Shown piece after piece: positions 690-64,000 of a DNA stretch of 64,000 nt (the stretch's first letter is position 1; every line of letters begins with the position of its first letter). This stretch comes from Xylaria sp. FL1777 (Eukaryota > Ascomycota > Sordariomycetes > Xylariales > Xylariaceae): the NCBI GenBank assembly GCA_022578965.1, contig MU400676.1:1-64000 (forward strand), read 5' to 3'. A program made the position numbers and the translations under genes. The notes beneath the pieces are model-generated. The model was not told the origin of the DNA. It did not search any database and worked only from the letters and a program-made list of their open reading frames with translations.

Positions 690-1300
690 CTACTGGAATT
701 TTTACGAGATAAGTTTATTAAGGAATTCCATGAATACTTATTATATAAACACTAAAGAGCAACAAAAACAGTTAAACAACTATAGGAAAAATACAATTTT
801 TTAAAACTATAAAACATGGTTAAATTTATTATAAAAAAGTGCAATATTTGCAATAAAGCTAAAGCAGCTTAACATAAGCTTTATAAACTGCTATAACTTA
901 TATAAATACTTAAACAAGCATAGCATACTATTACTTAAGATTTTATTATAGCACTACTTTTATTAATTAATTTAGTTACAAAAGTATAATATAATAGAAT
1001 ATAAGTTATTATTAATAAATTTACTAAGTATGCTTACTTTTTATTGTTTAAAGGAAATATAACAGCTAAACAACTTATATACGCTTTTATACGCTAATAT
1101 TTAAATAAGCATAAGCTACTAAAAAGGATTATTTTAAACTAAAATAAATTGTTTACTTTTAAATTTAAAACTAGTTTTTTTAAACTTATTAGTGTTAAAC
1201 TAAAGTTTTTAACTATTTATTATTTATAAACAAATAAACAAACAAAAAAACTAAACTAAATATTAAAACAATATTTATAAAGTTATATTAATTATTAATA
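690..1300 (+). other. Integrase zinc finger and DDE core within the chromovirus ghost
   Basis: The HHCC finger spans 729-851 and precedes the core that begins near 880. Conserved landmarks can be read: an HKPY-like turn as HKLY, the D of the first catalytic strand, the 'ITA-Q' stretch near 1,055 and the QT-x-x-QT motif at 1,227-1,250. Of the three metal-binding acidic residues only the first survives; the two others show GA-to-AA changes (Asp to Asn, Glu to Lys), as C-to-T change on the opposite strand would give. The enzyme would be dead even without the stops. Confidence 0.9.
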
Positions 1301-1853
1301 AAACAATTAAGTAAAACTATTACTAATAGCATAAATTTTATATAATATATTAACAAACGAAAATATAAATATATTTTTGCATAAAGCTGTTTATAAACAG
1401 CAAGCAACTACTAAAAAACAAAAAAAAACATTAATAAAAGCACTTGCTATTTTAACTATAGCACTTTAAGCAAAAACTATTGCAACAAAAATTAAAACGC
1501 TATAAACTAAACTATAACTATGTTTTTAGTTTTTATAACAATAAATGTTAGTATACTATAATAAAAAACAAACTAAAGAATTAACCTTTAAAAAAAAAAA
1601 CAAAGTTTATTTGCTACAATAAAAACAAAATGCAAACATTAATATTCCTTAAATTAAAACAAAACAACTAAGCAATAAATTAGAATTTAAAAAACTTAGT
1701 TTTTTTAAAATTAAAGAAGTTATTTTACTTACTAACTATAAACTATTATTACTAAAAAACATGCGAATTTACCTTGTTTTTTATATTTTTTTACTAGAAT
1801 TAATACTTATTAAAATACTTATTAAAACATAACTAAAAATAAAAATAAATTAA

Positions 1854-3047: not shown

Positions 3048-3185
3048 GATCTTTATTAATATATAGTAATAAAAGTATCTTAAAAACCTCCCTAACGGAC
3101 TACTATTAAAGATCCTATTATTACCTGCAAATTAAGACCTTAAAAGCAAACCTGTTATATTAATGTATAATAAGTCCGTTATAAC
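3048..3185. other. Less-mutated island with a 9-bp inverted repeat
   Basis: This stretch keeps CC, TC and GG words that are almost absent around it. A perfect 9-bp inverted repeat, taacggact at 3,093-3,101 and agtccgtta at 3,173-3,181, bounds a 71-bp spacer. It directly abuts the 111-bp array. It may be an unmutated remnant of that repeat's parent or a tiny inverted-repeat element; I cannot choose between them. Confidence 0.55.
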
Positions 3186-3690
3186 AAGGTCTTTATAGCT
3201 AATTATACGTTTAAGTAGCATTGCTTTATATTTAACTTTATAAGTTATAAGCAATATTATTAAAGAACTTATTGCTTTAATGCTTTTTGTATTTGCAAGG
3301 TTTTTATAGCTAATTATACGTTTAAGTAGCATTGCTTTATATTTAACTTTATAAGTTATAAGCAATACTATTAAAGAACTTATTGCTTTAATGCTTTTTA
3401 TATTTGCAAAGTTTAACTTACGTTTAAGTGGTATTACTATAAGCATTGCTTTATATTTAACTTTATAAGTTATAAATAATACTATTAAAGAACTTATTGC
3501 TTTAATACCTTTAGTACTTACAAGGTTTAATTTACGTTTAAGTAGTATTGCTATAAACATTGCTTTATATTTAACTATATAAGTTATAAGCAATACTATT
3601 AAAAAACTTATTGCTTTAATGCTTTTTAGTTATAAGTAATGCTATTAAGAAAACAAATAGCTTAATGTTTTTAATACTTGCAAGATTTAA
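3186..3690. repeat. 111/114-bp tandem array with a repeat-borne open frame on the minus strand
   Basis: Units anchored on an aagg/aaag word start at 3,186, 3,297, 3,408 and 3,522 (periods 111, 111 and 114), with a shortened, rearranged unit to about 3,690. Because the periods are multiples of three, a 153-codon minus-strand frame (3,132-3,593) stays open across the array and encodes repeats of 37-38 residues. Only about 38 codons are independent, so the open frame is explained by the repeat and is weak evidence of a gene. No known protein repeat is recognised. Confidence 0.88.
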
Positions 3691-10429: not shown

Positions 10430-11305
10430 TATTACTAGCTATAATTAAAGCTTTTTAAAAAAGCTTAAAGTTTTAAAGCTTTTTTATTAATGCTTAAAAT
10501 TGTTTAGTAAGCTTAAAGCTAATTAATATATTATACTAGTAAACGGTTTAAAGTTTTAAAGCTTCTTTATTAATGCTTAAAATTATTAGTAAGGCTTAAA
10601 GTTTTAAAGCTTTTTTCTTTATGCTTAAAATTGTTTAGTAAGCTTAAAGCTAATTAATATATTATATTTATAGCTGGCTAAATCTTTAGGGCTTTTTTCT
10701 TTATGCTTAAGATTGTTTAATAAGCTTAAAGCTAATTAACATATTATATTTATAGCTAGCTAAATTTCTAGAGTTTTTTTCTTTATGCCTAAAATTATTT
10801 AGTAAGCTTAAAGCTAATTAATATATTATATTAGTAAATTTTACTACTTATTATTGCATAGCTACTTACTACTAGCTATAATTAAAGCTTTTTAAAAAGG
10901 CTTAAAGTTTTAAAGCTTTTTTATGCTTAAGATTGTTTAATAAGCTTAAAGCTAATTAATATATTATATTAGTAAACCTTATATTTATTACTAGCTATAA
11001 TTAAAGCTTTTTAAAAAAGCTTAAAGTTTTAAAGCTTTTTAATGTCCAAGATTGTTTAGTAAGCTTAAAGCTAATTAATATATTATATTAATAGCTAGCT
11101 AAAGTTCTAAGGCTTTTTTTTTTATAACTAAGATTGTTTAGTAAGCTTAAAGCTAATTAACATATTATATTAGTAGATTTTATACTTGCTACTAGCTATA
11201 ATTAAAGCTTTTTAAAAAGGCCTAAAGTTTTAAAGCTTTTTAATGTCTAAAATTGTTTAGTAAGCTTAAAGCTAATTAATATGTTATACTAGTAAACTTT
11301 ACTAC
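10430..11305. repeat. Mixed-length satellite, 82-bp and 119-138-bp units
   Basis: The anchor gcttaaagctaatta occurs at 10,511, 10,642, 10,724, 10,806, 10,944, 11,063, 11,145 and 11,264. Spacings are 131, 82, 82, 138, 119, 82 and 119. Long units carry an extra block, ctagctataattaaagc plus an aagctttttaaaaa hairpin-like word; short units carry tttatagctagctaa. The order long, short, short, long, long, short, long suggests a higher-order arrangement made by unequal exchange. Confidence 0.9.
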
Positions 11306-23516: not shown

Positions 23517-24275
23517 TTATTTATACTACTTTAATTTTTATTTATGTTTATATATAACAATTAAAAGTACTGCTTGCTTAGTTTATTATTAAGTAATTTA
23601 TAATAACTAATTTAAAGTTGGATAATTTATAAATAATAATTTATATTACTTTAATTTTTACTTGCGTTTATATGTAGTAATTTAAAGCACTGCACGCTTA
23701 GTTTATTATTAAGTGATTTATAATAACTAACTTAAAGCTAGATAATTTATAAATAATAATTTGTACTATTTTAACTTTTATTTGCGTTTATATATAGCAA
23801 TTTAAAGTACTGCTTGCTTAGTTTATTATTAAGTGATTTATAATAACGCAAGCAAAAATAAACAAAGTTAAAAAAACACAATAAATAAAACTCTTTATGT
23901 TTTACTTAAAATGGCATTATAAAGCAGTAAACTTTAATAAAAACAGTTTATTATTAGGTGATTTATAATGATGCTATGCTAACTTTAAGCTAAATAACAT
24001 ATAAATTATAATTATTTATATTATTTTAATTATTTATGTTTATATATAGCAACTTAAAGCACTACTTGCTTAGTTTATTATTAGATAATTTATAATAACG
24101 TTACGTTAACCTTAAGCTAAATAATATATAAATTATAATTATTTATATTATTTTAATTACTTATGTTTATATGTAGCAATTTAAAGCACTGTTTGCTTAG
24201 TTTATTATTAGGTAATTTATAATAACGTTATGCTAACTTTAAGCTAGATAATATATAAATTATAATTATTAATAT
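23517..24275. repeat. 120/127-bp tandem array, about 6 units
   Basis: The anchor gtttattatt occurs at 23,581, 23,701, 23,821, 23,946, 24,073 and 24,200, giving spacings of 120, 120, 125, 127 and 127. The first units read gataatttataaataataa where the later ones read gctaaataatatataaatt, so the array changes monomer type near 23,870, where an A-rich block of about 70 bp breaks the pattern. Confidence 0.92.
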
Positions 24276-24620
24276 TTTTTTAAGTTAATAAATAGTAATA
24301 TGTAATAGAATTTCTGCTTTTATTATTAATATAGCAGCTATATTTCTGCTTGTTTGCTTGCTATTTAATTATTTTTAATAGCTTTATTACGTATATTTAT
24401 AAACTTTTTTAATTAAGAAAGTTATTTATAAAAAACGCGTTATTAGCTATTTAAAATTATTACTACTTTTAAACTAAAGTATATAATATATTATGCTTTT
24501 AAAGTAATTAAGTAGCTAATTTATAATGTTATTATGTTAAAGTTTTAAATTAAAAAAGAACTTAAAAAGCTTTAATGTATAAAACGCTATATTAGGTTAT
24601 ATAATTACTGCTGCATACTT
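24276..24620. other. Degenerate AT-rich sequence
   Basis: Nothing was recognised. Confidence 0.4.
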
Positions 24621-33095: not shown

Positions 33096-35073
33096 GTTTA
33101 AATTTATTTCTTTATACTTAAAATATTTTAGTTAATTAAGCTTACGTTAATTAATAAGTACTTTTTTAAAATTAAAGCATCTTTAGTAATAATAGCAAAA
33201 GGTATAAAGTCTTAAAAGTTAAATATAATAGTTAATATATTTCTAGTTTTATAATAAGTATTTAGCAAAATTAAAGCTTAAAAAAAAGAAAAAACTTTTA
33301 CGCATATATTATATATATTTAAGTAGTTTAGTTATAATATTATTACAAGTATTAATGCTATAAGTATTAAGTATTTTTTTTTTGTAGCGTTAAATATATT
33401 TTTTGCTACATTAGCTTTAATTTTCTTTATATATTGTTTAGCTAATAATTATTACTTAGCAGCCTATTATTATTGCTTAGTAGCTTATTACTAATGTTCT
33501 TTTTGTTTTTTGTAATATTGTTAACTTTGTTATTATACTTTTTTTATAGCTTTTATTATGTTTTGTAAATATGTTTAAAATTAAATTAATTTTTTAACGC
33601 TTGAACTAAAACGTTAATGTTTTAACAAAAATAGCTATAATTACAACATTAACGTTAATATTGATTTTTTTTATTTATATAACGCGCTATATACTTTATT
33701 CCTAATAATAAATAATATTAATAATGCTAATTGCGTTAAAAGCAAGCATATTATAGATGTTTTTATTTAAAACGTTAATACTGCAGCAATTTTTCCTAGT
33801 AATAAAACCTTTAAATTATTGCTTGTTTTTTCTTTAGCTGTTTAAAAGCTAAAAGCGCGCTTAAAAAAACCTGCGTTAAAACGCTAATTAAAATTAATAA
33901 GTCTTATTAAAAGCAAGCTTAATTTTTAAAAGCTAAAAAAGCTCGTACAAATCAATAGATTTAAAAGCAATAAATTAAATATACTGCTTGCTAATATTTA
34001 ATTATTATATATATAGCTTATATTTATTAATAAAGCAAATAAATTTACTGTTTTAAATTAAACACGTTATTAAATATTTAATAGCAATAAACTTTTATTT
34101 AATTTCTTACTTTTAATATGCTGCATATATTACAAAGCTATTGCTTTTATTAAATATTAGCAGCACAAATATAAGTAAAATAACAAAGTATACTTGCTTT
34201 TTTTAAAGTTAGCATTTAAGTTTAAGTTTAATAATATAAAATAGCATAGCTAAACACTATTAGTTTGCATTAAGCTAACAATATTTGCTTTAATTGCTTA
34301 TAATTTAATTTTATAAGTAAAAGAACTATTTATAAGCATTAATGCAAGCTTAGTATTAGCTTAATTTATATTAAAAAAAAGCATAAACATTAAGCATTTA
34401 GGCAGCTATTTTAATTGGTTTTTAGTATAAGTATAGCTTAATAGCAACAGTAAAAAGGTTAATTATATAGTTATAGCTAACCTTAAAAAAAACGTGCTTT
34501 TAAAGAAAGCTATTATAAAGCTAGCATTATTAGTTTAAAATAGAACTTTAGTTTATATTAATTAAACTATATATTTAGCTGTATTTAAAAGTTTTATTGC
34601 TATATTAATTAAAACAAAAACGACTTTATTATTACAAAATCCTATATTATAGCTTGTAATTTAAATTGCTATATAACATTAACATATATATTATTTCTAG
34701 GCTATACGTTTTTAATAAGTAGTGCTTAAAGATCAAGAAGTGCTTACGTTAGCGTTAGTTTTGCTAATTATAATAACCAGTTATAATTAAAACATATACC
34801 TAGCATATACTAAAGGCAATTTAATTATACTTTGTAGTTTGTTATATATTAGCTTAATAGCTACAGAGGTTTAGTTACGTAAGTTAATCTGCTTACTAAA
34901 AGCAATTAAAAAGTGAATACAAAGAGAATTTTATAAACAAATATACAAATGGTTTTTATGTAATAATTAAGAAATATTTTTTTTGTTTTTTTTTATAATA
35001 AAAACAACAAGCAATTAATACAACTAATAAACCTAATGTTATATGCCATTATTTATATTTAACAACTTTTATT
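33096..35073. other. Degenerate AT-rich sequence
   Basis: No recognised feature. From about 34,900 toward the foldback element the sequence keeps slightly more GA and TC words. Confidence 0.4.
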
Positions 35074-35811
35074 GATATATTTCCCCATACAAAAATATAT
35101 ACGGAATACATGCCCCATATTAAATAACTCCACTAATGTAAAGGTTAAAAATATAAGAAAATATGTTTTAGAGTCCTTATTTAAAACGAAATCCATATAT
35201 AACCTCCGTTCGTTCATAGCACCTTTATTGGTAAAGATATAACGTAATAAAGAATAGGTGTAAAAATACCCCTGTAAAATGTATAAAACTTAGTGCATAC
35301 TAATTAAAAAATAAAAAAAAAATAAAAAAAATAAGTTTTAAAATGTTTAATAAATTATTAATTCAATTCTAAAAGATCTTTATTTTTAAGCCTTTTTTTA
35401 ATTAAATAGCTAAGGTATAAAAAACAGTACATAAATATTTATATACTACTTTTTATACCCTTGTTATTTAATTAAAAGAAAATTAGAAAAATAAAAACTT
35501 TTAGTTTCTTGAAAGCCTATTTATTGCTAATTCTCAAAATGATTTTTCCCATTTTTTTAACATTTAAATAAGCAAGTTGCACTAAGCTAAATATAATAAC
35601 AGGGGTATTTGTTCCTAATATTTTTACTTTCTTTTCTTTTGTTTATATCTTTACCAATAAAAGTGCTATAAACAAGCAGGAGGTATATATGGATTCCTTG
35701 TTAAATAAAGACTTTAAAACATATTTTTCTATACTTTTAACATTTATATTAGTGAAGTTATTTAATATAGGGCATGTATTCCCTATATATTTTTATATAG
35801 GGAAATACATC
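35074..35811. mobile_element. 738-bp foldback element (palindromic MITE-like transposon)
   Basis: The left half is matched along nearly its whole length by the reverse complement of the right half. The ends read gat(a/g)tatttccc. Arms pair through acatgccc, agcac(c/t)ttttattggtaaag and acccctgt over the first 205 or so bases, then more loosely, then tightly again around the centre (aattaaata and ggtataaaaa against tttttatacc and tatttaatt), with ataaatatttat at 35,431-35,442 as the pivot. It encodes no protein, as expected for a non-autonomous DNA element of the MITE or foldback class. Many arm differences are C/T or G/A. It keeps CC, TC and GG words lost elsewhere, so it probably arrived later or escaped mutation. 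No clear target-site duplication was found, so the superfamily is open. Confidence 0.88.
35398..35474. other. Central hairpin of the foldback element
   Basis: ttaattaaata and gctaaggtataaaaa on the left pair with tttttataccc-ttgtta and tttaattaa on the right, around the palindrome ataaatatttat. Transcribed from either strand, this would be a long stem-loop. Confidence 0.85.
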
Positions 35812-36249
35812 TATGAAAGTAGCTAACTTGCTTAAGTAGCTCGCTTGCTTATAAACCATGTTATAGTTTATTTAAAAATAATTATTTTTATTATATTTTA
35901 TAAAAGTTTTAAGTTTATAGTTTTATAATTTATTATTAATAAAAACTTTATAAAAAATGCTAATATTATTATTGCTTTTAAATAGTTTTTAATTTTAAAC
36001 ATTATAAATTACTTTAGTTATAATATTTTTATATTTAAGTTTAAAATAATATAATTTTATAAGTTTAAATTAATTATTTTATTTTTAAGCTTTTTATTTT
36101 AAATTTAAGCATATGTTATAACTTATATAAGTTTTAAAGCAAATATGCAAAAAAAGCTAAAGGTTTTTTGCTAATTAAGTATATTTATAGTTTATAAAGG
36201 CTGCAATATGCAATAAAACAAAACATTAAATCTTTTTGTTGTTAAAATG
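35812..36249. other. Degenerate AT-rich sequence
   Basis: Nothing was recognised; the composition returns at once to the heavily mutated state. Confidence 0.4.
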
Positions 36250-36905: not shown

Positions 36906-37670
36906 CAAATTAAAAATAAAAGCATTTTAAATTAACAATAGAAATTTTGCTACTATTAGTTTATATTTAATGCAATTTTGCTTTAAAAATTAATAAGTAG
37001 CTTTTTAATAATACTTATTTATATTTTAATAAGTTAAACATTAATGCAAAAATAACGCTATATATAAAACTTATTATAAAAGTTTACTTTTTTAATACTA
37101 CTTTAATAAAAACTTTAAAAGTATTGCATTTTTACTTTTTAAACTTTTATATTGTTTATATATTTTTTAAAACAATTATTTATATTTATAAAACTTATTA
37201 TTAAACATTTAAATAAAACTAAATATATTAATTATATTTTTAGTTTATTTATTATTTATTTATAGCTAATCTTTTTATATAAGCTTAAATAGCTATATTA
37301 ATTATTGCTTATTTTTATATACTTAAATATATTTTTATTTTTGCTTTTTTTTTTTTTTTAGCTATTATATATACATTTTATTTACTTTTAAATACTTTTA
37401 TTTTATATGCTTAAAGAAAAAACCGCAATAGTTTTGTTTTAATCTTTGCGTTTATATATAATTTTTAAAAAGCTATGCATTAGCAGTAAAAACGAGCTTT
37501 TTTTGCAGCAGTTATTGCTTTAGCTATTATATTTATATAATTTGCTATTATTTTAAGATTATATAAAAATAGTTAGCTATGCATAAAAAATTAGTACTAT
37601 TAATATATAAAGCTTGCAATACTTTAGCTATAGCTTTTTTTGCTACTTTTAAACGTTATTATAATATATA
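36906..37670. other. Degenerate AT-rich sequence
   Basis: Nothing was recognised. Confidence 0.4.
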
Positions 37671-37990
37671 CTTTTTTATAAAAATTATACATTAAAATAC
37701 TTTTTTTTTTAAAGCTTTAAAATTATAAGCTAAGTAATAATATAATGTATGCTTTTTTATAAAAAATATACATTAAAATACCTTTTTTTTTAAAGCTGTA
37801 AAACTATAAGCTAAGCAATACTATAATATATGTTTTTATATAAAAGTTATATATTAAAATACTTTTTTTTTTAAAGCTTTAAAATTATAAGCTAAGCAAT
37901 AATATAATGCATGCTTTTTTATAAAGATTATATATTAAAATACCTTTTTTTTTAAAGCTTTAAAACTATAAGCTAAGTAATAGCGTTACT
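37671..37990. repeat. 81-bp tandem array, 4 units
   Basis: The word aaagct(t/g)taaaa starts at 37,711, 37,792, 37,873 and 37,954, exactly 81 bp apart. Each unit has tttttata, attaaaatac, a T-run, then aaagc and ataagctaag. Confidence 0.95.
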
Positions 37991-38664
37991 TTTATGCTTA
38001 TTTATTTAACTTTTAAATATAATATAAACATGTTTATTATTAAAAAGCATATTATTTTAAGTAAACTTATTAATAATAAACTTAAGCTAAAGCTTTTTTA
38101 TATTATAAGCTAGCTTAATTTATTTAGTATACGTATTGCTGTTTTAGCTATTAAAATACTTAATTATATATTGTTATAAACCTTAGAAAATTAAAAGTAT
38201 AAATATTCATTAAAAAAAAATAAAAAGAAAAAAAAACGTATAATAGCTAGTAAAAAAAAGTAAAAAAAAAAGCTAAAACTTATATAGCTTTTATACTAAA
38301 AATAAAAACAAAAATATTAATACTTTTTATGCTAAAGCAAAAAAAGCGCAAAAAAAATAAAATAAGCTAAAGTTAAACAAAGGTAAAACAGCTATAAAAG
38401 CAAAAGCTATTATTACAAAAATATATATGCTATATATATTTAATAAAAATAATGTTTTTAACTTTTTAATTTAGTAGCTAATAAAAATAGCAAATTTTCT
38501 AAAAGCATTATTTAATTAAATAAATATTTTTAACTTTGCTAAGTTAAAAACTTTAATAACTTATTTAAATTGTTTATATATATATAAATGCTTTTTAATG
38601 CTTTTTAATATTAATAAATTACGCTTAAAATAATATTTATTAATAAAAAGTATTTATAGTGCTA

Positions 38665-41105
38665 CTATATAAAGCATAGTTATTAGCATATATTTGCTTT
38701 AAAAAAAATAACTAAGCTAATATTGCAGCGCTTTTTCTTTGTATAGTTATTAATACTTACTTTAAATAAAACAATAAAGTTAATGCTATAGCGCTTTGTT
38801 TTTGCAAAAAAGTTTTGCAAAAACTACGCTTATAATTATTTATTAATAAATAAACTGTTAAGCTTTTATTTAACTAAAATAAGGAATTTTTTAATATGCT
38901 TATAAGCTAGTATACTATATATTTGCAATAAAAAAAACAATAAGCTTAACGTTATAGCGCTTTTTTTTTATAAAAAAGTTCTATAAAAACTACGCTTATA
39001 ACTATTTATTAATAAATAAACTTTTAAGCTTTTATTTAACTAAAATAAAGAATTTTTTAATATATTTATAAGTTAATATATTATATGCTTGCAGTAAAAA
39101 AAACAACAAAGCTAATAATATAGCCCTTTTTTTTTATATAGTTATTAGTATATACTTGCTATAAAAAACACAATAAAACTAATGCTATAGCATAATTACT
39201 AATATATACTTGCTTTAAAAAAAATAACAAAGCTAATATTATAGCACTTTTTTTTTGCAGAAAAGTTTTATAAAAACTATGCTTATAACTATTTACTAAT
39301 AAACAAACTTTTAAGCTTTTATTTAACTAAAATAAAGAATTTTTTAATACGTTTATAAGCTAATATACTATATGCTTGCAGTAAAAAAAACAACAAAGCT
39401 AACGTTATAGCGCTTTTTTTTTGCATAATTACTAGCATATATTTGTTATAAAAAAAACAATAAAACTAATGCTATAGCGCTCTTTTTTTGCAAAAAAGTT
39501 TTGCAAAAATTACACTTGTAACTATTTACTAATAAATAAACTTTTAAGCTTTTATTTAATTAAAATAAAGAATTCTTTAATATGCTTATAAGCTAATATA
39601 TTATATACTTGCGGTAAAAAAAACAATAAAGCTAACGCTGCAGCGCTTTTTCTTTATATAGTTATTAATATATACTTGCTATAAAAAAAACAACAAGCTT
39701 AATACTGCAGCACTTTTTCTTTATAAAAAAGTTTTACAAAAACTATGCTTATAACTATTTACTAATAAATAAACTTTTAAGCTTTTATTTAACTAAAATA
39801 AAATTCTTTTTAATACGTTTATAAGTTAATATATTGCATGCTTATAACAAAAAAAATAATAAAGCTAATGTTATAGCGCTTTTTTTTTGCGTAGTTGCTA
39901 ATATATATTTGCTATAAAAAAAACAATAAAGCTAATACTATAGCATAATTATTAACATATATTTGCTTTAAACAAAACAACAAAACTAACGTTATAGCGC
40001 TTTTTTTTTGCATAATTACTAGCATTTACTTTAAATAAAACAATAAGCTTAACACTATAGCGCTTTTTTTTTACAAAAAAGTGTTGCAAAAACTATACTT
40101 ATAACTATAAGCTAATATATTACATGCTTACTATAAAAAAAATAACAAAGCTAACATTATAGCATAATTGCTAGCATATATTTGCTTTAAATAAAACAAT
40201 AAAACTAACGCTATAACATTTTTTCTTTGCATAATTATTAATATTTGCTTTAAACAAAACAAAAAAGCTAATACTGCAGCGCTTTTTCTTTATAAAAAAG
40301 TTCTGCAAAAACTATACCTATAATTATAAGCTAATATACTGCATGCTTGCTATAAAAAAAACAATAAAACTAACGTTATAACATAATTATTAACATATAC
40401 TTGTTTTAAATAAAACAATAAAGCTAATGCTATAACGCTTTTTTTTTGCAAAAAAGTTCTATAAAAACTACGCTTATAACTATTTATTAATAAACAAACT
40501 TTCGGGCTTTTATTTAACTAAAATAAAAAATTCTTTAATATGTTTATAAGCTAATATATTATATGCTTATAATAAAAAAAACAATAAAGCTAATGCTATA
40601 GCGCTTTTTCTTTATGTAGTTATTAGTATATATTTGCTATAAAAAAAACAATAAAGTTAACGTTATAGCATAATTACTAATATATACTTGCTTTAAACAA
40701 AACAATAAAGCTAATGCTATAGCGCTTTTTCTTTATATAATTACTAGCACTTATTTTAAATAAAACAACAAGCTTAATACTATAGCGCTTTTTTTTTGCA
40801 AAATTAAAGCATAATTACTAATATATACTTGCTATAAAAAAAACAATAAGCTTAATACTATAGCATAATTACTATTATATATTTGCTATAAAAAAAACAA
40901 TAAAGCTAATGCTATAATGCTTTTTTTGTGTATAGTTATGAGTATATAACTTAAAAAAAACAACAACACTAATGTTATAGTGCTTTTTACTTATAGAAAT
41001 GTTTTATAAAAACTATACCTATAATTATTTATTAATAAACAAACTTTTAAGCTTTTATTTAACTAAAATAAGCAATTCTTTAATATGTTTATAAGCTAAT
41101 ATATT
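38665..41105. repeat. Higher-order satellite, A (166 bp) and B (54-70 bp) units
   Basis: A units run from tatagcgc through a T-run, caaaaaagttttgcaaaaac, cttttatttaactaaaat and ttataagctaatata to an A-rich ac(a)ataaagctaa tail. The starts 38,791, 38,957 and 39,123 are exactly 166 apart. B units (for example 39,123-39,190 and 39,190-39,244) keep only the gcataattactaatatatac block and the shared tail. The cttttatttaactaaaat block occurs seven times, and A and B units mix irregularly up to 41,105. It is the largest array in the window, lies inside LINE copy 1, and codes for nothing I can see. Confidence 0.93.
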
Positions 41106-61379: not shown

Positions 61380-64000
61380 ATTGCTTTTTTTATAAGTTTT
61401 TAAACTATAGTATTTAAATAGCATTTTTTTTTAATTTTTTAATTAAGATTATTAGCTTTGTAAAAAAAATTTAAACTTTAAAGCTTTAAGTTATTATTAT
61501 ACATAAAATTAAAGCTTTAGTATAATAATTTTACATATATATTTAAAAAGCAATATTTAATAATACTTTTAACTTTTATTTCTTTATATGTAATAAAAAA
61601 TGTATTATTAATCTTATTATAATTATAAAGCAGCAATACTTTATTATTTATGTAAAATGCCTTTATAATATAACATTAATTAATTTTTTTAGTAGTTATT
61701 TTAATTAAATGTTATAAATAAATAAGTTTGTTTAAAAAAGCTAACTAAGTAGCTTTATTAACGTTTTTTTTTTATTATAGTTATTATATTTAAGCGTGCT
61801 GTAATTTTTTGTTATTAAAAAAGCTTTTTATAATAAATATTTATAAATACATTTTTTTAATGTTTATTAATATAGTATTATTAACCTTATATTAATTTAA
61901 GTAGTTTAGCTTTTATAATTGAATTTTATTGCTATAAATAAAATGCTTTTAATAAAATAAAACTTATTAACATTTGTTTATAATATAAGTTTAATACATA
62001 AAAAACTCTGCAAAAATTAAAAAAGTACTAAACTATTTTACTTTATAAGTAAAAGTAATTTTATATTTTTAAACCTTTTTTATATAATAATTATAATATA
62101 TATAGTTATTTAAAAAAAAACAGTTTATTTATTTATAAATATTTTATAATTAAGCAAAAAGTATTAATTAGTTAATATAACTATAATATATTAAACGATT
62201 ATTTGCTATAAAGTTTTATATAAACTTTTTAAATAAAGCTAAACTAATAATTTTTTTTATAATAATAATTAAATAGCTTATGTTTTTATTATATATTTAT
62301 AGTAGCTTTATTATTAAGCAGTATAAAAATAACATTATTAAATTAAATTATTTTAATAAAAGCTATTTAATCTTTAAAACTTTATACTAAGCTTTAAAAG
62401 TTATATAGTTAAATAAACATAAATTAAAACTATTTAATAAACTTAGCTTTTTTAGCTTTAATAAATATATAAGCTTTTTTTAGTTTTAAAAGCTTGCTAA
62501 AAGCTATATAAAAAAATAATTTATAAACGTAAAATATAACAATAATTTTTAATATAGTGCTTTCTTTAAAAGCTAAAAAAATATTTATAGCTAAGTTTTA
62601 TTAATAATAATTAAAAGTTTTTACTTTTTGCTAAAAGTAGTACTAAAATATAATTTACTACTTAAAACTATTTACTTGTTTAAAAATATAATTAATATTT
62701 ATAATAAAAGCACTTTAAAAGTTTATAATATAATTAATAATATATTATTTTATAAATGCTATTAAAAATTTATATATAAATATTATTTATATGTTAAATT
62801 AAAATTTAAAACTATTAAAAATAGCATATTAACTATAATTATAGTAACACTTATAATAATTAATAATATATTTAATAAAGTTTATAACTTATAAAAATAA
62901 TTAATAAAATCTTTAATATTTAAATATAAGCAATTTTAACTTATAATAAACTTTTTTGTTTATATTTACATTAAGCTTAAATATAATTTAAATTTAGTTG
63001 TTTATAAAATTGTTAAATTTGTTATAATTATTTATTAATAGTTTAAAAAACAAGATTTTATAAAAGTAAAACTTTTTATTTTTATATTAAAAAGTATTAT
63101 TAAAATATATATATTTAATAATTTTAAATAAAAAATGCTAAAAAAATTAAAGCTTATTAAAAAAATTACTATTATTAATTAATATATATTAAAAAATAGT
63201 TTAAATCGAACTTAATATAATTTTTGTTTTTTTTTAAACTTTTAGCAAATTAAAAAACTAACAATAGTATACTTTTTATTTTTTTTAAAGCTAAAAAAAC
63301 AAATCTTTTATAATAAAAAGCAAGTTAAATTAAAGTTAAAAATAGCAATATAATAATTATATTGCTTTGTTTAAATAAGTTATTTTTTTTTTGCTTTTAA
63401 TATAACTTAAAGCTAAAAATTAACTTTATTAAAAGCTATTATTAAAAATATTTTTTAAGTAAAATATAAACTTGCTTAATATTAAAAAGTAAACAAAATT
63501 TAAGCAAAATTTTATTATAAAGCATTATAGCTTAACTAAAGCAACTTGTTTAAAAATAAAATTTATTTTTATAAATTAAAGTAAAAATATTATTTAAACG
63601 TTTAAAATAATTAAAATACTTTAATACAATTAAAAAATAATATAGTTTTTAATAGTTATTAAAGCAGCTTTTTATTTATATAAAAAAAAGTTATAAGTTA
63701 TAAGCATTAAAATATTTATTTAATAATATAAGCTGCGCTATTTTAAAGTTTTAAAAATAATAAAAGTTTAAGCTTGCATAATTATATATAAAGCAATTTT
63801 GCTAGCTTAAACAAAGTAAATATATAAAATATAATGCTTATAATAAATAATAACTAAAATTAAACTGCTTTAAAAAAAAAACCATGCTATATTTATTTAA
63901 ATGCTAATTTTAATATACGTATATATATAAATACTTATAAATTAATATAAATTAATATTATTAAATTTTATTAAAATAAGTAAGCAAAATATTAGTAAGC
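61380..64000. other. Extremely AT-rich degenerate sequence to the window end
   Basis: G+C drops further here; the line 62,761-62,820 has one G and one C in 60 bases. The gct/agc words common elsewhere thin out. No repeat or frame was recognised. Confidence 0.6.

What the first reader, a model, noticed from the sequence alone, without database searches (positions are those of the whole stretch)
35074..35811. A 738-bp long-palindrome element that has escaped most of the mutation around it
Seen: the two halves are reverse complements along almost the whole length, pivoting at 35,431-35,442, with ends gat(a/g)tatttccc. It retains CC, TC and GG words that the flanks lack. Arm-to-arm differences are largely C/T and G/A. 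Known: MITE and foldback elements have this form, and transcripts of long palindromes can make double-stranded RNA. Inference: it inserted after the main mutation wave or was shielded by its size or copy number, and could be a young, still mobile family with small-RNA potential.
Basis: partly seen in the sequence, partly recalled or inferred. Interest (0 to 1): 0.85.

Follow-up and report, generated by a model that had tools for sequence, protein, structure and literature searches.

The report
Hairpin-shaped jumping gene in Xylaria
This is one copy of a small, nearly palindromic, non-coding jumping element in the genome of a Xylaria fungus; it probably borrowed the cutting enzyme of a larger transposon and has taken only a light dose of the mutation that ruined the DNA around it.

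Summary
The host is Xylaria sp. FL1777, whose genome holds 18 near-full copies. Copies end in a 47-bp inverted repeat flanked by TA; 7 of 16 copies tested have clean paralogous empty sites with one TA. The same ends bound 475-486-bp and 1,864-1,868-bp classes; the one 1.87-kb element read is homologous to a copy carrying a DDE_1 transposase domain. So this is a MITE of a Fot1/pogo-type Tc1/mariner transposon. All six DDE_1 matches found contain stops, so 'still mobile' is unsupported. Escape from the local hypermutation is partial: within subfamilies, 11 unlinked copies lost 6-37% of target sites (this copy 21%), two close-linked pairs 34-86%. Beyond the finding, the main target of that mutation is C after a pyrimidine (TpC, CpC), with only a secondary effect of the next base; classical repeat-induced point mutation prefers CpA. 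The genome has two RID-clade methyltransferases.

The parts
35034..35863 (.). whole MITE copy including both flanking TA (830 bp)
   Evidence: alignment of copies and boundary table
35034..35035 (.). left TA of the target-site duplication
   Evidence: single TA in paralogous empty sites of other copies
35862..35863 (.). right TA of the target-site duplication
35034..35068 (+). damaged left terminal inverted repeat: 35 nt left of 47, sub-repeats not recognisable
35817..35863 (-). right terminal inverted repeat, full length (47 bp)
   Evidence: hit of the genome-wide TIR pattern at C171:35844-35863
35837..35850 (-). outer TIR sub-repeat (AAGCAAGCGAGCTA)
35820..35833 (-). inner TIR sub-repeat (AAGCAAGTTAGCTA)
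35069..35436 (+). left arm of the palindrome
35437..35816 (-). right arm of the palindrome
1041..1642 (+). unoccupied paralogue of the insertion site of copy C6a (602 bp, 87.9%, no gap, one TA at the junction)

Best explanation
The element is a non-autonomous, palindromic MITE of a Fot1/pogo-type (DDE_1) Tc1/mariner transposon of Xylaria sp. FL1777. Shown: common 47-bp terminal repeats with two 14-bp sub-repeats per end, TA target duplication, empty sites, a 1.87-kb class with the same ends, no conserved reading frame. Inferred: the transposase of the partner bound the sub-repeats of the MITE, mobilised it and inserted it at TA in AT-rich repeats. The family then took a light dose of a repeat-directed C-to-T hypermutation, because single 0.84-kb copies are poor substrates and some copies are recent; close-linked copies were hit harder. 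In this assembly the partner genes found are broken, so the family is probably immobile now.
For: 18 near-full copies. Of 16 copies with both ends, 11 are 841-845 bp and five are 821-830 bp. Degenerate TIR pattern: 143 genome hits, 0 for the reversed control pattern; among the 100 hits that were listed, 35 facing pairs fall at 475-486 bp (9), 841-845 bp (7), 1,864-1,868 bp (12) and 3.1-16.8 kb (7). The TIR of the 1,865-bp element at C41:42977 is 98% identical to that of MITE copy C125 over 47 bp. That element aligns over nearly its whole length, with transitions ignored, to the DDE_1-carrying copy at C346 (score 549, 10 shuffles at most 365). Clean empty sites with one TA among held loci for C6a, C50, C433, C123, C104a, C104b, C58. 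For the window copy a match at C56:191065-191156 spans the junction, 92 nt on both sides, 78% (alignment itself not seen). Reading frames: variable sites spread nearly evenly over codon positions (right arm 40, 40, 50 of 97; left arm 38, 33, 40 of 83; 11 copies), and 1-bp shifts in several copies.
Against: No intact partner transposase was found: 6 of 6 PF03184 matches contain stops. None of the 12 listed 1.87-kb pairs is among those matches, so their coding content rests on homology of one of them to C346. The five DDE_1 copies with this TIR align over about 3.1 kb including 30 bp outside the TIR, two of them over 6.4 kb, and no opposite TIR met the criteria; they may descend from one insertion. 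The inner sequence of the MITE shows no clear relation to the partner, so its origin is unexplained. For 9 of 16 copies no clean empty site was found among held loci.
Confidence: 0.9

Rival explanations
1. A hairpin RNA locus: the palindrome is transcribed, diced and used to silence the transposon family, and selection keeps the arms complementary.
For: Strong fold. 64 of 235 pairs have changes on both sides, against 40.5 in shuffles (0 of 500 reach it) and at most 29 when slid, in a structure derived from the same alignment. At least four Piwi/Argonaute genes. Inner arms of one copy are more alike (mean 0.825) than left and right arms of different copies (0.785).
Against: The clearest excess is in the terminal repeats: 83 transition-only and 50 other double-change cells of 706 paired cells. 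The inner arms have 76 and 8 of 2,853; slid controls give 11-47 and 0-1 of 1,432-1,608. Transition-only double changes can arise by hypermutation of the same motif in both arms. In the arm tree 12 of 16 right arms form one group apart from the left arms; those of C157, C126, C6b and C58 fall among the left arms, so some exchange between arms is possible.
Confidence: 0.08
2. The element escaped mutation only because it is young, not because of its size.
For: C50, C433 and C155 differ by 0-2 transversions and have lost 6-8% of YpC sites. Flanks are AT-rich. Unlinked copies vary: C126 37%, C123 30%, W 21%.
Against: Copies of well-separated subfamilies (C6a/C6b 79%, C125/C58 77% identical) are still only lightly mutated (C6a 14%, C125 16%, C6b 15%, C58 16%), while the two close-linked pairs of the C6a subfamily are worse: C104a/b 34 and 44%, C213a/b 84 and 86%. 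TIR sites kept fall with element size: 8.2, 7.7 and 5.8 of 10 for the 480, 843 and 1,866 classes. Limits: only two linked pairs; within-subfamily figures miss shared losses; ends of one element are not independent; the class comparison also reflects age and TIR subtype.
Confidence: 0.3
3. A protein-coding element: outward reading frames in both arms encode a small membrane-like peptide.
For: Open frames in the right arm (63-97 codons) and left arm (67-110) of the 11 copies read. N/S ratios of 0.28-0.82 in 18 pair comparisons.
Against: Nearly flat codon-position profile and 1-bp insertions or deletions in the frame in C6a, C125, C123, C104a, C104b. The N/S ratios were not corrected for transition bias, and no control frame was run.
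Confidence: 0.02
4. Dispersal by segmental duplication or assembly artefact rather than transposition.
For: The copies lie in repeats, in a draft assembly of 588 contigs.
Against: Flanks differ from copy to copy and base-exact empty sites exist for 7 of 16 copies.
Confidence: 0.02

Closest known systems
Tc1/mariner MITEs of Sclerotinia sclerotiorum (PMC4188875, passages read)
   Same: Six MITEs of 481-813 nt belonging to Mariner families; table rows seen list elements of 1.4-2.0 kb with TIRs of 44-70 bp; the authors propose mobilisation in trans and hairpin dsRNA
   Different: In the passages seen those MITEs are not described as full-length palindromes, and no coordinated change of sub-repeats is mentioned
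Fot1/pogo-type autonomous elements of filamentous fungi (recalled)
   Same: TA duplication, about 1.8-1.9 kb, DDE_1 domain
   Different: This element has no transposase and its inner sequence is unrelated to the partner read here
mimp MITEs of Fusarium, moved by impala (a title in a reference list; rest recalled)
   Same: Non-autonomous, TA duplication, moved in trans by a Tc1/mariner transposase
   Different: Shorter, different TIR, Tc1-like rather than pogo/Fot1-like partner (recalled)
Foldback or palindromic MITEs (recalled)
   Same: Two long arms forming a single hairpin
   Different: Here the 47-bp TIR shows coordinated changes that the inner arms hardly show
Repeat-induced point mutation (PMC2621366, PMC4352252, PMC8959702, PMC9970103; passages read)
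   Same: C-to-T in repeats on both strands; small elements partly escape, as stated for N. crassa, and MITEs of Zymoseptoria keep a higher GC (PMC9970103); RID-clade genes present
   Different: Signatures named in those passages are CpA, CpT, CpG and TpCpG. A 5' effect is reported for Monilinia, Botrytis and Sclerotinia (PMC8959702) but as depletion of GpC; here GpC is the best preserved

Membership tests
MITE of a Tc1/mariner (Fot1/pogo) transposon | TA target-site duplication | tested here: met
   Of 16 copies: 7 clean single-TA empty sites, 2 weak (C125, C6b), 2 dropped as self-matches (C213a, C213b), 5 none among held loci
MITE of a Tc1/mariner (Fot1/pogo) transposon | terminal inverted repeats shared with a longer class | tested here: met
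   47 bp, 98% between C125 and the 1,865-bp element at C41; size classes
MITE of a Tc1/mariner (Fot1/pogo) transposon | partner encodes a DDE_1 transposase | tested here: inconclusive
   DDE_1 in 5 copies beginning with this TIR and transition-blind homology of one of them to the 1,865-bp element; no intact gene found
MITE of a Tc1/mariner (Fot1/pogo) transposon | no coding capacity of its own, under about 1 kb | tested here: met
   821-845 bp; frames not conserved
MITE of a Tc1/mariner (Fot1/pogo) transposon | mobilised in trans | not testable with these tools
   needs an excision assay
Foldback / palindromic element | arms complementary over the whole length | tested here: met
   self reverse-complement identity 0.71-0.87 in the 18 copies against 0.63-0.70 in 10 shuffles of the window copy; the one-ended copies C2 and C160 are close to the shuffles; fold z -17.4
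Repeat-induced point mutation (flank mutation) | C-to-T bias in repeats | tested here: met
   C50/C433: 21 transitions, 0 transversions; C213a/C213b: 45 and 2
Repeat-induced point mutation (flank mutation) | CpA (3' neighbour) as the main determinant | tested here: not met
   C213a+b: YCA 41/50, YCC 52/57, YCG 20/22, YCT 31/44; RCA 19/44, RCC 5/36, RCG 6/24, RCT 18/56. C104a+b: YCA 26/50, YCC 11/58, YCG 15/22, YCT 23/44; RCA 5/44, RCC 2/36, RCG 1/24, RCT 5/56. The base before C dominates at each 3' base; A and G after C are a secondary preference in lightly mutated copies
Repeat-induced point mutation (flank mutation) | RID methyltransferase present | tested here: met
   two RID-clade genes, C14 and C17
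Repeat-induced point mutation (flank mutation) | dependence on repeat length and linkage | tested here: inconclusive
   trend as expected but only two linked pairs, and ranges of linked and unlinked copies overlap
Repeat-induced point mutation (flank mutation) | acts before meiosis in the sexual cycle | not testable with these tools
   needs a cross

The most novel reading that the evidence does not exclude
Xylaria hypermutates its repeats with a 5'-pyrimidine rule (TpC and CpC are hit, GpC and ApC largely spared) on top of a weaker preference for A or G after the C. This differs from the CpA rule of classical RIP. It may be carried out or tuned by the divergent RID-clade methyltransferase (C14) that it has beside a second RID-clade gene (C17). 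The palindromic MITEs, whose copies span 6% to 86% loss of target sites, are a natural dose series for its length and linkage dependence.
Probability: 0.5. Interest if true: 0.7.

Novelty: new member of a known kind. Interest (0 to 1): 0.5.

Why it matters
As a transposon it is an ordinary kind of element, a new Fot1/pogo-type palindromic MITE. It is a useful probe, because copies of one nearly fixed length, unlinked or in close pairs, show how a fungal genome-defence mutator treats sequences near its size limit. They also expose a 5' sequence rule that RIP indices built on the base after C do not measure. The four terminal sub-repeats of a copy change together between subfamilies, including transversions, which suggests adaptation of the MITE to different transposase binding specificities, or exchange of ends between elements.

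Tried and rejected
Coding hypothesis for the arm frames: rejected. MITE body derived from the partner: 13 of 16 transition-blind comparisons do not exceed the best of 8 shuffles; the other 3 exceed it slightly (C6a to C346 155.5 vs 150; C6a to the 1,865-bp element, reverse strand, 152 vs 149; C58 142.5 vs 140.5). DDE_1 copy at C68 (longest open frame, 264 aa): no matching TIR in its 3.5-kb locus. Reading TIR plus DDE_1 in five loci as five insertions: rejected, since they share a larger repeat (output of both was cut). The first local empty-site search at low stringency was swamped by AT-rich chance matches; the stringent repeat gave the result, from which C213a and C213b were dropped and C125 and C6b counted as weak. 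Copies C2 and C160 (one end lost) were left out of the boundary, pair and arm counts; C157 was left out of the within-subfamily counts (34% in the all-copy count, where all 16 copies give 23-87% for YpC and 16-49% for RpC). TIR mutation counts use the first 100 of 143 hits, the only ones listed. My first statement that the base after C matters little held only for C213a; the two-way table corrected it, and I lowered the interest of the novel case from 0.75 to 0.7 for that reason. Literature: searches for a TpC or 5'-context RIP (122, 40, 4 and 32 papers, of which 20, 20, 4 and 10 were listed) and for RIP in Xylaria or Xylariales (12 papers, none) listed no paper that I recognised, from title or start of abstract, as reporting this rule. 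Passages were read in PMC8959702, PMC2621366, PMC7882544, PMC4188875, PMC4352252, PMC5148876 and PMC9970103, no paper in full. Clutterbuck 2011, a main survey, was seen only as a citation. Palindromic pogo MITE in a fungus: one search listed 3 papers, none read.

Full report
Host. The window is contig C171 of a 58.7-Mb assembly in 588 contigs. An open frame beside one copy of the element (L018:4844-5965, contig C213) is 100% identical over 99% of its length to a protein of Xylaria sp. FL1777, and the contig length of that record, 69,351, equals that of C213. So I take the host to be Xylaria sp. FL1777.

Observation. The inverted halves are real (80.4% over 357 aligned bases; 50 shuffles average 65%), and the transcript would fold as a single hairpin (z -17.4). 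The genome search lists 18 near-full copies and five partial matches, some weak; its counts are lower bounds. Aligning the copies with their flanks moved the ends outwards: 16 copies have both ends, related to TAACGTGGTT... and its reverse complement. The copy in the window is 35,034-35,863, with a damaged left end. Lengths of the 16: 843 (7 copies), 844 (2), 845, 841, 830, 826, 824 (2), 821.

It is a transposon. For 7 of 16 copies a paralogous unoccupied site exists among the held loci, with exactly one TA at the junction; one lies in this window at 1,041-1,642. For the window copy a match of equal length (92 nt, 78%) spans the junction at C56, and others with small length differences do so elsewhere. 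A transition-tolerant pattern for the terminal 20 bp hits 143 places, the reversed control none. Facing pairs among the 100 listed hits cluster at 475-486 (9), 841-845 (7) and 1,864-1,868 bp (12), with 7 longer. The one ~480-bp element read in full (C95, 482 bp) is itself 85% palindromic. The 1,865-bp element at C41 shares the 47-bp TIR with the MITE and aligns over nearly its whole length, transitions ignored, to a DDE_1-bearing copy at C346. This points to a Fot1/pogo-type Tc1/mariner partner (family assignment from DDE_1, TA and size; recalled features). All six DDE_1 matches contain stops, so a working partner was not found here.

Terminal repeats. Each TIR holds two 14-bp sub-repeats. In 14 of 18 copies all four are readable (typed by eye). 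Three copies (C50, C433, C155) have AAGCGAGTGGACCA-type units, 12 of 12. Seven (C6a, C125, C123, C104a, C104b, C213a, C213b) have AAGCGAGCGACGCA-type units, 28 of 28 if C/T and G/A changes are read through; this type differs from the first by two adjacent transversions. Three (C6b, C58, C126) have T for G at the third base, 12 of 12. C37 is mixed. Double changes that include a transversion make up 50 of 706 paired cells in the TIR helix but 8 of 2,853 in the inner arms. I infer that the sub-repeats are transposase binding sites that change together under that constraint or by exchange with other elements; this was not tested.

Mutation. The window has TC 0.19 and GC 5.1 obs/exp, and most flanks of other copies look similar, with a few GC-richer exceptions. 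In the most mutated reference comparison, C213a, C after C or T is changed in 71 of 87 sites and C after A or G in 20 of 80 (Fisher p about 1e-13). A two-way table shows that the base before C dominates at every following base. In C213a+b YCN is changed in 70-91% and RCN in 14-43%; in C104a+b 19-68% and 4-11%. In W and C126 together the gap is smaller (12-55% against 9-30%), and YCC (7/56) is about as low as RCC (4/36). In lightly mutated copies A or G after C raises the rate and C lowers it, so a CpA preference is present but secondary. Against 6.9 kb of GC-rich flank DNA from two loci, the window keeps 2-5% of TCA, TCC, TCG, CCA, CCC and CCG, 17-29% of CCT and TCT, 67-95% of ACA and GCA, and more ACT and GCT than the reference; ACC and GCC are low (7-13%), as expected when their second C is hit.

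Dose. Loss of YpC sites within subfamilies: C155 6, C50 and C433 8, C6a 14, C6b 15, C37 15, C125 16, C58 16, W 21, C123 30, C126 37%; close pairs C104a/b 34 and 44, C213a/b 84 and 86%. Subfamilies have 2 to 7 copies and the ancestral state is guessed per column, so figures compare best within a subfamily. TIR sites kept fall from 8.2 (480 class, 18 ends) and 7.7 (843, 14 ends) to 5.8 of 10 (1,866, 24 ends): p 3e-5 and 1.5e-3 against the 1,866 class, 480 against 843 not significant (p 0.40). I read this as RIP acting near its lower size limit, stronger on linked copies; with two linked pairs this is a lead, not a proof. PMC9970103 (passages) states that RIP in N. crassa is weaker below about 500 bp and that MITEs of Zymoseptoria have a higher GC, so escape of small elements as such is known.

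The rule. Signatures in the passages read are CpA, CpT and CpG, and TpCpG in Microbotryum (PMC2621366, PMC4352252). A 5' effect is reported for Monilinia, Botrytis and Sclerotinia, but as loss of GpC (PMC8959702), the opposite of what is seen here. The genome has two RID-clade methyltransferases in separate clades, in a tree of 37 proteins chosen by me from 120 listed (of 541 found): C14 with Xylaria and Nemania proteins, C17 with Ustulina and other Xylaria proteins; proteins named rid1 and 'rip defective' are in the same tree. Some deep nodes are weakly supported. A third gene (C98) I take for DIM-2-like from recalled motifs. Linking C14 to the rule is speculation, and there is a counter-example to a simple link: Phialocephala subalpina has two RID-like gene models and a CpA signature (PMC5148876, passages).

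Verdict. A new palindromic Fot1/pogo-type MITE family: well supported, ordinary in kind. The mutation rule that it reveals is the more interesting lead.

Noticed in passing
window 1-64000: Extreme dinucleotide bias: GpC 5.09, TpC/GpA 0.19 obs/exp, pointing to hypermutation of C mainly after pyrimidines.
   Followed up: partly
L056 (C14:216400-217700) and L057 (C17:449100-450700): Two RID-clade DNA methyltransferase genes in one genome, in separate clades that both include several Xylariales.
   Followed up: partly
C36:280080-289608, C110:3859-13122, C147:96037-105603: Three facing TIR pairs 9.3-9.6 kb apart: either a larger relative of the family or nested insertions.
   Followed up: no
L036:1067-1548 (C95) and eight other places: A second MITE class of 475-486 bp with the same TIR; the C95 copy is 85% palindromic over 482 bp.
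   Followed up: partly
L046-L050: A repeat (five copies aligned over about 3.1 kb, two over 6.4 kb) holding a degenerate DDE_1 transposon with one TIR; opposite TIR not found.
   Followed up: partly
window 35862-36083: The right flank of the window copy is a repeat: 26 of the 57 matches start within five bases of the insertion TA, as if the MITE sits at or near the end of another element.
   Followed up: no
window 3185-3627, 10455-11288, 23517-24283, and several arrays within 37660-40988: AT-rich tandem arrays with units of about 50-290 bp.
   Followed up: no
window 62001-64000: GC falls to 11.7%, the lowest 2-kb step of the window.
   Followed up: no
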